Of a stretch of 64,000 bases of DNA, positions 1-24,868 are shown in pieces. A program made the position numbers and the translations under genes. Source of the DNA: Asticcacaulis sp. ZE23SCel15 (GTDB lineage: Bacteria > Pseudomonadota > Alphaproteobacteria > Caulobacterales > Caulobacteraceae). Position 1 is the stretch's first letter; the number at the start of each line of letters is the position of its first letter. Location: positions 2,155,001 to 2,219,000 of the forward strand of contig NZ_CP130044.1 in assembly GCF_030505395.1 (NCBI RefSeq), in the 5' to 3' direction. The notes below the pieces were generated by a model. That model did not search any database and had not been told where the DNA came from. It saw only the letters and a list, made by a program, of their open reading frames with translations.

Positions 1-241
1 GCACCTGCTCCTCAAACTCCATGCGCTTGAGGTCGTTGCTTAACGCCCGCTCAGGCGTGGCGGAAAAGACCATGCTCTGGGCGCGGTAAATGTGAACGGC
101 GGCCAGTTCACCGGCGTGATCGACGCGCAGGATTTCTTCTAAGCGGTGGCGTGCGGCCCCTTTGCCCGGACGTGGCGGGACACCCGAAGGCGTAGGCGTG
201 ACCGCTTCGGGGATTTCTTCGACCAGAATATCGTCACTCAT
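1..241 (-). CDS. coq7: Coq7-family demethoxyubiquinone hydroxylase (partial, N-terminal part)
   Basis: The first 80 codons or so run off the left edge of the window. Reading from the ATG at 241, the peptide has a short acidic, proline-rich leader and then LRVDHAGELAAVHIYRAQ, the signature of the first metal-binding helix of Coq7/CAT5 di-iron hydroxylases. The E of that motif is a di-iron ligand in the family. Coq7 hydroxylates demethoxyubiquinol in ubiquinone synthesis at the inner membrane. The remaining ligands lie outside the window and cannot be checked. An intergenic palindromic repeat (260-313) lies just upstream of the start. Confidence 0.85.
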   Translation of the reverse strand, partial: MSDDILVEEIPEAVTPTPSGVPPRPGKGAARHRLEEILRVDHAGELAAVHIYRAQSMVFSATPERALSNDLKRMEFEEQV

Positions 242-3528: not shown

Positions 3529-3613
3529 GCCCCTGTGGTGGAATTGGTAGACGCGCCGGATTCAAAATCCGGTACCGAGAGGTGTGTCGGTTCGAGTCCG
3601 ACCGGGGGCACCA
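3529..3613 (+). tRNA. tRNA-Leu(CAA)
   Basis: The 85-nt sequence folds as a class II tRNA with an encoded CCA. The acceptor stem is GCCCCTG/CGGGGGC. The anticodon stem CCGGA/TCCGG encloses TTCAAAA, giving anticodon CAA. A short variable arm and a GGTTCGAGTCC T-arm follow. Its 3' end forms the left attachment site of the island (3591-3614). Confidence 0.96.
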
Positions 3614-3785: not shown

Positions 3786-5063
3786 ATGGCACTCACAGAC
3801 GCACAAATTCGCGGCGCAAAACCCAAAAGCGACCGCGCCTACAAACTTTATGATGAATACGGCCTGTTTATACACATTTCGCTGACCGGGGCGAAACTCT
3901 GGCGGTTCCGCTTTCAGTATGCGGGTAAAGAGAAAACCCTCTCATTGGGCGCATACCCCGCCATTGGCGTGCGGGAGGCCAGGCATAACCGTGATGAGGC
4001 TCGCCGTCTGCTCGCCGTTGGCAAAGACCCTTCCGCTGAACGCAAACGACAAAAGATCGCAACGAGCCTCGCGGCTAGGAACACCTTTGCGGCTGTGGCC
4101 GAAGAGCTAATCGACAAAAACGAAAAAGAAGGGATGGCCGAGGTCACTCTCAGCAAGCAGCGCTGGATCGTTTCCTTGTTGGCCCCCACTATCGGTGATC
4201 GGCCCATTTCTGACCTTGAACCTCTGGAAGTGCTGAATGCCCTAAAGCAAATTGAAAAGGGCGCGCGATACGAGACCACACAACGCGCACGGTCTCTGGC
4301 CTCACGCATATTCCGATATGCGATCATCACAGGCCGCGCCCGCCACAATGCGGCGGCGGACCTCGGCATGGCGCTTATTTCCCACAAGCCCAAACACCAT
4401 GCCGCTATCATTGATCCCGACGCGCTGGGCGCGCTTCTGAGAGCCATTGAAGACTTTGAAGCCGGTACGTCGGTGATGTTCGGGCTGCGGCTCTTGCCTC
4501 ATGTCTTTGTCCGGCCAGGTGAGTTGCGTCATGCCGAGTGGAGGGAGTTTGATTTTGAAAAGGCGATCTGGCGCATTCCAGCAGGGCGCATGAAAATGCG
4601 CGATGAGCATGTCTTGCCCTTGTCCCGACAATCCAAAGCGATCCTTCAGGAAGCGCGGCAATATCACATCAATGGTCCATTGGTGTTCCCAAGTGTCCGG
4701 ACATGGACGAGGCCTATGTCAGAAAACACCCTGACTGCCGCGCTTCGGCGGATGGGGTATTCTGGTGACGAAATGACAGCGCACGGCTTCCGAAGTACTG
4801 CCAGCACCCTCCTAAACGAAAGTGGTCTGTGGTCGCCCGACACGATTGAGCGCGCCTTGGCTCATAAGGACTCCAATACCGTCAGGGGCATTTATCATCG
4901 GGGTACGCATTGGAAAGAACGGGTTGAAATGGCGCAGTGGTGGTCTGACCATCTGGATGAATTGCGCCTGAAGGCTGGCCTCGCACGTCGCGAAGCCTCA
5001 AAAGTTGCCTGTCAGGCAACGCCATTCTTGACGTCGAGGGCGTTGTCTGGTAGACAACAATGA
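3786..5063 (+). CDS. int: P4-type tyrosine integrase
   Basis: A 425-residue site-specific recombinase. The N-terminal DUF4102 arm-binding domain covers about residues 1-90 (LTDAQIRGAKP, then KLWRFRFQYAGKEKTLSLGAYP). A core-binding domain follows, then the catalytic domain with R243 (RPGEL), H333 and R336 (HGFR), H360 (ALAH) and the nucleophile Y370 (GIYHR). It catalyses integration and excision at tRNA-Leu. The last codons overlap the higB start by four bases (ATGA), and two palindromes lie inside its 3' end (5004-5058). No ribosome-binding site is clear; TACCCCAC precedes the ATG. Confidence 0.95.
   Translation: MALTDAQIRGAKPKSDRAYKLYDEYGLFIHISLTGAKLWRFRFQYAGKEKTLSLGAYPAIGVREARHNRDEARRLLAVGKDPSAERKRQKIATSLAARNTFAAVAEELIDKNEKEGMAEVTLSKQRWIVSLLAPTIGDRPISDLEPLEVLNALKQIEKGARYETTQRARSLASRIFRYAIITGRARHNAAADLGMALISHKPKHHAAIIDPDALGALLRAIEDFEAGTSVMFGLRLLPHVFVRPGELRHAEWREFDFEKAIWRIPAGRMKMRDEHVLPLSRQSKAILQEARQYHINGPLVFPSVRTWTRPMSENTLTAALRRMGYSGDEMTAHGFRSTASTLLNESGLWSPDTIERALAHKDSNTVRGIYHRGTHWKERVEMAQWWSDHLDELRLKAGLARREASKVACQATPFLTSRALSGRQQ
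5004..5058. promoter_or_regulatory. Tandem palindromes, likely HigA operators, inside the int 3' end
   Basis: GTTGCCT-GTC-AGGCAAC (5004-5020) and GTTGTCT-GGT-AGACAAC (5042-5058) share the pattern GTTGYCT-N3-AGRCAAC. Their centres are 38 bp apart, and the second ends one base before the higB ATG. Antitoxins of the HigA type repress their own operon through palindromes near the start, so these are strong operator candidates. They are fully contained in integrase coding sequence. Confidence 0.65.
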
Positions 5064-5341
5064 TCAAGAGCTTTGGTGACAAGATTACGGAACAACTGTT
5101 TCAGGGGCTTGCCGTCAGGCGGATGGATCGGGGGCTGCAAAAACAGGCCCTGAGACGTCTCAGATACATCGATGCAGCCGTCACCCTCGAAGACCTGCGG
5201 ATACCGCCCGCCAATCGACTGGAGGCACTGCAAGGTGATTTGAAGGGCTGGTACTCGATCCGAGTCAATGATCAGTTTCGGATCATTTTTCGATGGATTG
5301 ATGGCGAAGCTCACGACGTGAAACTGATAGATTACCATTGA
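5060..5341 (+). CDS. higB: HigB/RelE-superfamily toxin
   Basis: A 93-residue toxin of the HigB (RelE fold) family, in which members cleave mRNA on the ribosome. It starts MIKSFGDKITEQLFQG and ends with the typical FRIIFRWIDGEAHDVKLIDYH strand-turn-strand, containing the R and H residues expected in the active-site area. The toxin precedes its antitoxin, as in other higBA pairs. Its ATG overlaps the integrase stop as ATGA, so translation is probably coupled to int. Confidence 0.92.
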   Translation: MIKSFGDKITEQLFQGLAVRRMDRGLQKQALRRLRYIDAAVTLEDLRIPPANRLEALQGDLKGWYSIRVNDQFRIIFRWIDGEAHDVKLIDYH

Positions 5342-5353
5342 GCGAGGTTAGCC

Positions 5354-5650
5354 ATGTCTCACATCGAAATTGAACACCCTGGGGTAATGCTTCGCGAGGA
5401 TTTCCTTGAGGCAATGGGTATAAAGCCTGGAGCCTTAGCCGCTGCTATCGGCGTTGACCGGGCGGCTATCAAAAAGATTATCGAGGGCAAGCGGGCAATC
5501 ACCGCCGAAATGGCACTACGGCTAAGTATCTTTTTCGGGACCACTGCTGAGTTCTGGATGAACCTACAATCCGATTATGACCTTCGGATGGCTCGGCGCG
5601 AACGGTTGGAAGAGTTTTCGTTGAGAATATTGCCTAAAGGGCTGGCGTGA
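5354..5650 (+). CDS. higA: HigA-family antitoxin (XRE-type HTH)
   Basis: The 98-residue antitoxin belongs to the HigA/VapA-like addiction-module family. It begins with the HPGVMLREDFLEAMG motif, followed by an XRE helix-turn-helix (ALAAAIGVDRAAIKKIIEGKR) and the FFGTTAEFWMNLQSDYDL segment typical of the family. It should neutralise HigB and repress the operon, probably through the palindromes at 5004-5058. It lies 12 bp after higB. Confidence 0.93.
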   Translation: MSHIEIEHPGVMLREDFLEAMGIKPGALAAAIGVDRAAIKKIIEGKRAITAEMALRLSIFFGTTAEFWMNLQSDYDLRMARRERLEEFSLRILPKGLA

Positions 5651-6518: not shown

Positions 6519-6812
6519 CTATCTACGGGGCTTAAGGGGCAATTCTAACTGCGCTGGTCGCTGAATGGCCGCCGACACAATTTTAGCCTCTGGAAGTGCT
6601 GGCGAGGGGGCTTGCGCTGACGCCTCTGGCTCGCCGCCCTGATTGAGGAAATCGAGTAGGTCAATGCGCAGGATAAGACGGCGGCCACCGACCTTCACAG
6701 ATCGCAACTTACCCTCGGCCATTTTCTCATACAGGAAAGAGCGACCAAGGCCCGATGCCTTCACGGCTTCATCAATACGGTATGCAATCTTGTCAGTGGC
6801 GTTGAAAGGCAT
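6519..6812 (-). CDS. AlpA/excisionase-like helix-turn-helix protein
   Basis: A small DNA-binding protein (97 residues) with a MerR/AlpA-type HTH: YRIDEAVKASGLGRSFLYEK, then a wing GKLRSVKVGGRRLILRIDLLDFL. The rest is proline/alanine-rich and low-complexity. The start at 6812 is chosen because GGAG lies five bases upstream. The open frame continues to 7061, but that part shows no family resemblance. In P4-type islands such proteins act as excisionases or as activators of int, which fits the location. Confidence 0.8.
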   Translation of the reverse strand: MPFNATDKIAYRIDEAVKASGLGRSFLYEKMAEGKLRSVKVGGRRLILRIDLLDFLNQGGEPEASAQAPSPALPEAKIVSAAIQRPAQLELPLKPRR

Positions 6813-7382
6813 GTCGGCTCCTTGGTCGGGAACTAAGATACCGTTGCCTTTGAAATTGGCAGATAGTCCTTTCATCCTCGGAACCCACCGTTTGACCGCA
6901 GTTGGAGCGTCCGACCGGCCCCCAAAAGGCCAGGGCGGGCGCGCAGCGCAAGGGCACTTTAGAGCGGTGGCAACATCGAATGTGGTTGAGAGGCTGAAAA
7001 ATAATTGCAAATTCAAATAGTTAAGTAAATTTAGTCTCTTGACACTAATCCAAGTCTCCACAAAAAACGATGTGCAGACAAAGACTTGGCCGATTTAGGA
7101 GGCATTGCTTTTATCTTGCTCTAAACCTTACAAACTGAATTTTCTCAACTTTTAGGCCATTTCTCATCATACAAAGTTCAAAATCCAGACGCTTGGCTCG
7201 TGATCCCAGCCGAGTAGAAACCGTCGTCAACAATGGGCTGACGGTTTGCCGGACATCCCGTGCGGACAGCTATGGACGGCCATCATGTCAAAGGCTGACC
7301 TGAAACGCTGGAAAATATAATCCGCAATCATGGCATTGCAGGGCGAGTCAACGACAATTATAGATAGTGGACGCCAACGGAA
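6813..7382. other. Gene-free stretch inside the island
   Basis: The 570 bp between the AlpA-like gene and the MNT-HEPN gene contain no ORF that I can support; the frames present are low-complexity or extensions. The section from about 7010 to 7200 is AT-rich and may hold promoters for the two divergent genes. No repeat or RNA was recognised. Confidence 0.5.
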
Positions 7383-8294
7383 ATGCACATGTTACCTGAC
7401 GCCCTTGATCACCTGCCGGATACCAAACGCCGCGAGCTTGAGCATGTGGTGAAGGTGCTGTTCGACAGTTTTGAGGCCGCTACGCAGACCAAGCTGTCAG
7501 AGAAACGCAAGGGCGGTCGCATCCTAAAGATCATACTTTTCGGGTCATATGCGCGCGGTGACTGGGTTGAAGATCGCCTGTCTGGCTATCGCTCAGATTA
7601 TGACCTTCTGGTCGTCGTCAACAGCTATGAGTTCACCGATTTGCAGGAATACTGGAGTGCGGCGGATGATCGCTTCGTCCGAGAATACACACTCACACAT
7701 GACCTAAAAACGCCGGTCAGTTTTATCGTCCATAGCCTGGCTGACGTAAACGACCAACTTGCCAAAGGTCGCCCGTTTTTCTCGGACATCGTCAAAGATG
7801 GCGTTGTACTATATGAGGCAGCGGGACATCCGCTGGCCAAGCCAAAGGCGCTGACGCCAGAGGAACTGCAGGCCGAGGCCAAGGGTTATTATGACCAGTG
7901 GATGTCGAAGATGGCAGGCCTCGATCTCACATTTGAGGCAGCGTTGATCGCTGATGACAGAAAGCTCGCGTCTTTCCTTCTCCATCAAAAAACCGAGTCA
8001 TTGTACCACTGCGTATTACTCACGCTCTCCCTTTACAGCCCGAAATCTCACCGACTTTCATTTTTAAGATCGCAAGCCGAAGGACTGGATGAGCGGCTGA
8101 GAACTATTTGGCCGGATGATGATAAGTTTGCCAAAAGATGCTTTGCCAAACTGCAACGCGCTTACGTAGAGGCCCGGTATTCTGCGGATTATGACATCGG
8201 CTTCGACGAACTGATGTGGCTTAAAGAGCGAATTGAGCATCTAAGACTCACCATCCAAATGATCTGCGAAATGAAAATCGCAACTACGGCCTGA
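7383..8294 (+). CDS. MNT nucleotidyltransferase-HEPN fusion protein
   Basis: The 303-residue protein joins two domains usually encoded as a toxin-antitoxin pair. The N-terminal half is a minimal nucleotidyltransferase with ILFGSYARGDWVED, followed by GYRSDYDLLVVV. The GSYARGD and SDYDLLV metal-binding aspartates are both intact. The C-terminal half is a helical HEPN domain with the AYVEARYSADYDIGFDEL segment. The canonical RNase motif R-x4-6-H is not apparent there, so RNase activity is doubtful. Fused MNT-HEPN proteins of this length are a known annotation class, and unfused relatives act by AMPylating or nucleotidylating the HEPN partner. No partner gene is adjacent. Confidence 0.88.
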   Translation: MHMLPDALDHLPDTKRRELEHVVKVLFDSFEAATQTKLSEKRKGGRILKIILFGSYARGDWVEDRLSGYRSDYDLLVVVNSYEFTDLQEYWSAADDRFVREYTLTHDLKTPVSFIVHSLADVNDQLAKGRPFFSDIVKDGVVLYEAAGHPLAKPKALTPEELQAEAKGYYDQWMSKMAGLDLTFEAALIADDRKLASFLLHQKTESLYHCVLLTLSLYSPKSHRLSFLRSQAEGLDERLRTIWPDDDKFAKRCFAKLQRAYVEARYSADYDIGFDELMWLKERIEHLRLTIQMICEMKIATTA

Positions 8295-24516: not shown

Positions 24517-24844
24517 TAATTTCAACTCATCCTTAGCTGACTGCCCTTAGCTAAATATATCAGATCAATTCCACAAAGCGACAAGCGATCTCGAATGTCC
24601 GCTCTCGAAGATTTCGTCTGGCAAGTTAGGCCGCTATGGGCGCTAATTCAGAAAAAGTCTAAATTGAATATATATCCATGGAAGCCATTGGATAAATATG
24701 GACTTTCATGTATATCTGCAGTGTCGACATTTTTTTGTAAATATTTGCTCAATTAGGTGCAAAATTAGCACGGGGTATTAATTGGGTGTCGGCATAAGTT
24801 AATTGCTCCGATATATTTTTTTATTCAATTGGTTCAATTATTTA
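24517..24844. other. AT-rich stretch before attR
   Basis: The 328 bp contain no supported ORF. From about 24640 to 24850 the sequence is strongly AT-rich, as is common at the ends of integrated elements. No inverted repeats that look like arm sites stood out. Confidence 0.5.
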
Positions 24845-24868
24845 TTCGAAGCCGACCGGGGGCACCAG
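24845..24868 (+). other. attR: duplicated tRNA-Leu 3' end
   Basis: TTCGA, two mismatched bases, then CCGACCGGGGGCACCAG (24852-24868), repeating the tRNA-Leu T-arm/acceptor end at 3591-3614. No tRNA body precedes it, so it is a displaced copy created by integration and not a gene. Confidence 0.85.

What the first reader, a model, noticed from the sequence alone, without database searches (positions are those of the whole stretch)
5004..5341. higBA toxin-antitoxin fused translationally to the integrase, with operators inside int
The higB ATG overlaps the integrase TGA as ATGA. Two related palindromes, GTTGYCT-N3-AGRCAAC, lie in the last 20 codons of int. This layout would make toxin synthesis depend on integrase translation, and would let HigA bind inside int, so the addiction module and the excision enzyme could share control. 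It is a plausible stabilising arrangement for the island.
Basis: partly seen in the sequence, partly recalled or inferred. Interest (0 to 1): 0.62.

Follow-up and report, generated by a model that had tools for sequence, protein, structure and literature searches.

The report
Toxin-antitoxin promoter embedded in integrase tail
A standard self-repressing toxin-antitoxin pair sits so tightly behind a genomic island's integrase gene that its own promoter and repressor sites fall inside the integrase's dispensable last 30 codons; related islands repeat this packing with unrelated toxin families, so it is mostly ordinary but shows a recurring way of bolting a toxin-antitoxin pair to an integrase.

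Summary
The integrase stop (5061-5063) and higB ATG (5060) overlap as ATGA. Two perfect dyads, O1 5004-5020 and O2 5042-5058, lie in the last 19 int codons and are the only exact matches in the 3.77-Mb genome. Four higBA homologues in the same genus, with no integrase upstream, carry the same GTTG-N9-CAAC pair at 37-38 bp spacing around the same TTGnnn-17-TAnACA promoter. The operators therefore belong to higBA, not to int. Operator type tracks HigA's recognition helix (6/6 versus 0/141). Int homologues end at about residue 395; the tail spanning the operators is under relaxed protein constraint while the GTTG/CAAC half-sites are unchanged. The ATGA is built into the family's Met-Ile start (150 of 156 higB genes begin NTGA). 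Best reading: an autonomous, autorepressed GraTA-type HigBA whose promoter overlaps int. No HigA site lies near the int promoter. Further result: behind 61 other int relatives, five unrelated TA modules follow int directly and two overlap it, so the compact layout recurs. Int-dependent toxin synthesis is untested and not excluded, because the window's -10 is only 3 nt from the ATG.

The parts
3529..3613 (+). tRNA-Leu(CAA), integration target; its last 24 nt (3590-3613) form the left att repeat
   Evidence: ARAGORN; repeat
3786..5063 (+). int, P4-like tyrosine recombinase, 425 aa
   Evidence: Pfam PF13356, PF22022, PF00589; NCBIfam PRK09692 domain match, below its cut-off
4971..5060 (+). non-conserved C-terminal tail of int (residues 396-425), overlapping the higBA promoter
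   Evidence: Homologues stop conserving at about residue 395; substitutions versus A. endophyticus: tail 5 in synonymous and 10 in nonsynonymous codons, body 72 and 11
5004..5020 (.). O1, 17-bp HigA operator GTTGCCTGTCAGGCAAC
   Evidence: same motif at the same spacing in int-less homologues
5028..5033 (+). predicted higBA -35, TTGACG
   Evidence: 17 bp from TAnACA in all six Asticcacaulis higBA loci
5042..5058 (.). O2, 17-bp HigA operator GTTGTCTGGTAGACAAC, covering the -10
5051..5056 (+). predicted higBA -10, TAGACA (preceded by TGG)
   Evidence: inference, no transcript data
5060..5341 (+). higB, GraT-type toxin (predicted ribosome-dependent mRNase)
   Evidence: PF05015; best solved relative 6f8s_B
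5354..5650 (+). higA, GraA-type antitoxin and repressor
   Evidence: TIGR02607; best solved relatives 6f8s_A and 6f8h/6fix
24844..24867 (+). right att repeat; island is about 3614-24867
   Evidence: 21/24 match to the tRNA-Leu 3' end; synteny with A. endophyticus resumes at 24852

Best explanation
This is an ordinary type II toxin-antitoxin module of the GraTA branch of HigBA, with its own autoregulated promoter (TTGACG-17-TAGACA), carried directly behind the integrase of a tRNA-Leu island. HigA dimers bind two 17-bp dyads, O1 upstream of the -35 and O2 over the -10, and repress higBA. The module is packed so closely behind int that int's reading frame runs through the promoter, giving Int a dispensable 30-residue tail and ending at the TGA that any Met-Ile start contains. 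Shown: anatomy, conservation of the operator-promoter unit without int, operator-helix co-variation, relaxed protein constraint on the tail. Inferred: HigA binding, promoter activity, toxin action. The likely role is maintenance of the island or of the module itself. No terminator is evident between the genes, so int read-through transcripts probably also enter higBA.
For: (1) Four same-genus homologues without int upstream (L117-L120, HigB 67-72% identical) have GTTG-N9-CAAC twice at 37-38 bp and the TTGnnn-17-TAnACA promoter in the same place. In 867 kb of fetched sequence such pairs occur only at these higBA promoters. (2) All six HigA with helix DRAAI have the GTTG operator and none of 141 others do; 37 of 41 PPRRI helices have a TAACG-type dyad. 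(3) Across 148 non-redundant homologues, 92 have a 17-bp dyad with at least 6/7 arm pairs within 75 bp upstream, against 16 in shuffles and 15 of 144 in a control region. (4) Int homology ends at about residue 395. Against A. endophyticus, nonsynonymous change is raised in the tail, and none of 16 GTTG/CAAC half-site bases differ versus 15 of the other 74. (5) 150 of 156 higB genes begin NTGA. (6) HigB and HigA match the GraTA structure 6f8s best. GraA autorepresses its promoter through palindromes (PMC6393540), as does P. aeruginosa HigA (PMC6987408).
Against: No binding or transcript data exist. The window and A. endophyticus have only 3 nt between the -10 and the ATG, against 5 in int-less relatives and a mode of 6 in the family, so the predicted start site could fall inside the start codon. 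The six GTTG-type loci are closely related and not independent. The half-site conservation comes from a single pair of species and is only marginally significant.
Confidence: 0.85

Rival explanations
1. One reading: higB is translated only or mainly by termination-reinitiation at ATGA on the int transcript, so toxin synthesis depends on integrase synthesis, and HigA on O1/O2 co-regulates int.
For: The ATGA overlap is real and shared with A. endophyticus. No terminator lies between the genes and higB has no clear Shine-Dalgarno. The -10 is unusually close to the ATG.
Against: The same operator-promoter unit serves int-less homologues. ATGA is intrinsic to Met-Ile starts. No operator lies near the int promoter. 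Overlap length varies among int-TA pairs while a -35 stays close to the toxin start.
Confidence: 0.1
2. The dyads are structural (for example an int terminator or Int arm-type binding sites), not HigA operators.
For: They lie at the 3' end of an integrase gene. Some int relatives have hairpins just after the int stop.
Against: They recur upstream of higB where there is no int and co-vary with HigA's helix. The terminator scan found no + strand terminator at 5004-5058.
Confidence: 0.04

Closest known systems
GraTA (HigBA family) of Pseudomonas putida, structures 6f8s/6f8h/6fix
   Same: Best solved relative of both proteins; toxin gene first; antitoxin represses its own promoter through palindromes (PMC6393540)
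   Different: GraA uses one central TAACGTTA with two dimers on opposite faces; here two separate GTTG-N9-CAAC dyads 38 bp apart and a different recognition helix; no integrase overlap described
HigBA of Pseudomonas aeruginosa
   Same: HigA autorepression via palindromes upstream of higB (PMC6987408)
   Different: TTAAC-GTTAA half-sites bound as one compact operator, not inside a neighbouring gene
mosAT of the SXT integrative element
   Same: TA of an integrated element, autorepressed, promotes element maintenance (PMC2654960)
   Different: Different proteins; near the middle of SXT, not overlapping int; induced by Xis/SetCD
Other integrase-adjacent TA modules in relatives of this int (L108 HI1419/HI1420, L213 and L211 Gp49/HTH_37, L104 MqsRA, L206 HipBA)
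   Same: Co-directional TA as the next module behind the same integrase family; L108 and L213 also overlap int
   Different: Unrelated toxin families and different overlap lengths

Membership tests
HigBA type II TA (GraTA branch) | HigB-like RelE-fold toxin | tested here: met
   PF05015 over the whole protein, 81.7 bits, cut-off 27; GraT and HigB in PDB
HigBA type II TA (GraTA branch) | HigA family HTH antitoxin | tested here: met
   TIGR02607 104 bits, cut-off 47.7
HigBA type II TA (GraTA branch) | Toxin gene precedes antitoxin gene, co-directional | tested here: met
   5060-5341 then 5354-5650; 80 of 80 homologous loci have higA following
HigBA type II TA (GraTA branch) | Palindromic operators at the toxin promoter | tested here: met
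   O1/O2 and family-wide dyads
HigBA type II TA (GraTA branch) | Toxicity neutralised by antitoxin; HigA represses promoter | not testable with these tools
   needs expression and binding assays
P4-like tyrosine recombinase island | Arm-binding, core-binding and catalytic domains next to a tRNA gene | tested here: met
P4-like tyrosine recombinase island | Direct repeats of the tRNA 3' end bound the element | tested here: met
   3590-3613 and 24844-24867; A. endophyticus synteny resumes at the repeat
Translationally coupled int-toxin operon | Toxin lacks its own conserved promoter | tested here: not met
   Promoter-operator unit conserved without int
Translationally coupled int-toxin operon | Reinitiation at the overlap on a shared transcript | not testable with these tools
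   needs translation reporter

The most novel reading that the evidence does not exclude
Integrases of this family repeatedly acquire a TA module whose promoter lies inside the int 3' tail. In the present lineage the start codon has moved to within 3 nt of the -10, so full-length toxin comes mainly from int read-through transcripts while HigA bound in int acts as a roadblock, linking addiction to integrase expression.
Probability: 0.1. Interest if true: 0.65.

Novelty: new member of a known kind. Interest (0 to 1): 0.34.

Why it matters
It corrects a tempting reading: an ATGA overlap and operators inside a gene do not imply coupling when the toxin family always starts Met-Ile and the operators travel with the TA. 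It supplies a new HigA operator class (GTTG-N9-CAAC with helix DRAAI) that can be tested directly. It also documents a recurring compact layout, TA modules packed against or into integrase tails across at least three toxin families, which makes the question of how integrated elements tie addiction to int testable.

Tried and rejected
Searched for the same int-higB junction elsewhere. An integrase profile run on upstream reading frames of 156 higB loci hit only the window and A. endophyticus (flanks of only 1.5 kb for the genome-search loci). The 17 viral-contig, 5 phage-record and 501 plasmid-record relatives were located; only the viral-contig loci entered the int test. The promoter scanner missed the higBA promoter because its -10 matches weakly. 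Literature searches for int-overlapping TA and leaderless higBA found no description of this arrangement in the open-access library. The library lacks most subscription papers, so absence is weak evidence. No structure prediction was run: family matches to solved GraTA were sufficient.

Full report
WHAT IS THERE. The window lies in a 3.77-Mb genome whose nearest named relative is Asticcacaulis endophyticus, Caulobacteraceae. A tRNA-Leu(CAA) gene (3529-3613) is followed by int (3786-5063), higB (5060-5341) and higA (5354-5650), all on the + strand. int has the three domains of P4-like tyrosine recombinases. HigB is PF05015 and HigA is TIGR02607. The int stop and higB start overlap as ATGA. O1 (5004-5020) and O2 (5042-5058) are perfect dyads and the only exact matches to GTTGYCT-N3-AGRCAAC in the genome.

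THE OPERATORS BELONG TO higBA. If the sites served int they should vanish where int is absent. Four higBA loci in the same genus (L117-L120; HigB 67-72% identical) have no match to this int nearby. Each carries GTTG-N9-CAAC twice, 37-38 bp apart, ending 3 bp before higB, with a TTGnnn-17-TAnACA promoter in the same register. In 867 kb of fetched sequence, pairs of this motif 30-45 bp apart occur only at these promoters. O1 lies upstream of the -35 and O2 covers the -10, the usual place for autorepression. Across 148 non-redundant homologues, 92 have a 17-bp dyad with at least 6 of 7 arm pairs in the 75 bp before higB, versus 16.2 expected from shuffles and 15 of 144 in a control region. Such operators are thus normal for the family.

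THE OPERATOR TYPE FOLLOWS HigA. The DNA-reading helix reads DRAAI in six HigA proteins and all six have GTTG-N9-CAAC; none of the other 141 has it. Of 41 with PPRRI, 37 have a TAACG/TGACG-type dyad. This supports HigA as the protein that binds O1 and O2, although the six are close relatives and binding itself is untested. GraA and P. aeruginosa HigA repress their promoters through palindromes (PMC6393540; PMC6987408). The closest solved structure for both proteins is GraTA (6f8s).

THE INT TAIL IS NOT CONSERVED AS PROTEIN. Int homologues stop aligning at about residue 395 of 425 and end in short, variable tails. In A. endophyticus, whose locus is syntenic, int differs by 72 changes in synonymous and 11 in nonsynonymous codons in the body, but by 5 and 10 in the 30-codon tail. 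In the 90 bp before higB none of the 16 GTTG/CAAC half-site bases differs, versus 15 of the other 74. This fits DNA function on a dispensable protein tail; with a single species pair the half-site part is only marginal statistically.

THE ATGA IS INHERENT. 150 of 156 higB genes begin NTGA because the toxin begins Met-Ile. Any upstream frame that runs open into the start in the right register must stop there. The overlap is therefore weak evidence for coupling.

IS THE LAYOUT UNIQUE? An integrase profile run on upstream frames of 156 higB loci hits only the window and A. endophyticus. I then looked behind 61 other, non-redundant relatives of this int; one of these is the A. endophyticus copy of the same int-higBA pair. 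Five others have a co-directional TA as the next module: HI1419/HI1420 (L108, 8-nt overlap), Gp49/HTH_37 (L213, 55-nt overlap; L211, +70), MqsRA (L104, +130) and HipBA (L206, +349), confirmed by Pfam and NCBIfam. In the two other overlapping cases a TTGACA lies inside the int tail about 35-40 nt before the toxin start (read by eye). Gp49 has only 12 hits in 25 genus genomes, and two of these lie directly behind an int of this family, which is far above a random placement (my estimate is about 0.004 expected). TA modules thus recur behind this integrase. Recurrence is shown; its cause (selection for island maintenance, or a shared hot spot) is inferred. TA modules near integrases have been noted before (PMC7280312), and mosAT shows that a TA can stabilise an integrated element (PMC2654960).

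MECHANISM. Most likely higBA is transcribed from its own promoter and repressed by HigA on O1/O2. The int reading frame simply overlaps it. int transcripts probably read into higBA, since no terminator separates them. HigA cannot repress int initiation from sites 1.2 kb downstream, and no copy of the motif lies near the int promoter. A roadblock to int elongation is possible and untested.

A LOOSE END. In 67 of 148 homologues a TTGnnn-16..18-TAnnnT promoter lies in the last 45 bp (5 expected from shuffles), with the -10 ending 5-6 nt before the start codon in 49. This implies leaderless or near-leaderless toxin mRNA, an inference. In the window and A. endophyticus the distance is only 3 nt, so the first transcribed base may fall in or after the ATG. 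If so, full-length toxin could depend partly on int transcripts.

ISLAND. The tRNA 3' end recurs at 24844-24867. Homology to A. endophyticus resumes exactly there, so the island is about 21.3 kb. In A. endophyticus the tRNA-int-higBA block is kept at the same site but the cargo differs. Its higB carries a compensating pair of indels that scrambles residues 23-48, so the toxin may be weakened there. Disrupted higB is common in pseudomonads (27% of homologous loci; PMC7280312).

VERDICT. A well-packed but ordinary GraTA-type HigBA whose promoter overlaps int. It is a new member of a known kind with a new operator specificity. The recurrence of int-embedded TA promoters deserves a systematic census.

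Noticed in passing
window 3590-3613 and 24844-24867: tRNA-Leu 3' end repeat defines a 21.3-kb island; the A. endophyticus island at the same site has other cargo but the same int-higBA.
   Followed up: yes
L005 4001-4282: A. endophyticus higB has a one-base insertion and a one-base deletion about 80 bp apart that scramble residues 23-48; the toxin may be inactive.
   Followed up: partly
upstream of higB in 148 homologous loci: The -10 usually ends 5-6 nt before the toxin start codon, suggesting leaderless toxin mRNA across this HigBA family.
   Followed up: partly
L108, L213, L211, L104, L206: Relatives of this int are followed by unrelated TA modules (HI1419/HI1420, Gp49/HTH_37, MqsRA, HipBA); two overlap int.
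   Followed up: partly
L201 6071-7265 (own genome): A second, 59-79% related integrase next to tRNA-Leu(CAG) is split by a frame change and followed by a HipB-like HTH gene.
   Followed up: no
window 7383-8294: Nucleotidyltransferase-domain protein (Polbeta, NTP_transf_2, weak SMODS) in the island cargo; function not examined.
   Followed up: no
window 6519-7061 (-): HTH_17 (AlpA/excisionase-like) gene in the island, on the opposite strand to int; candidate directionality factor.
   Followed up: no
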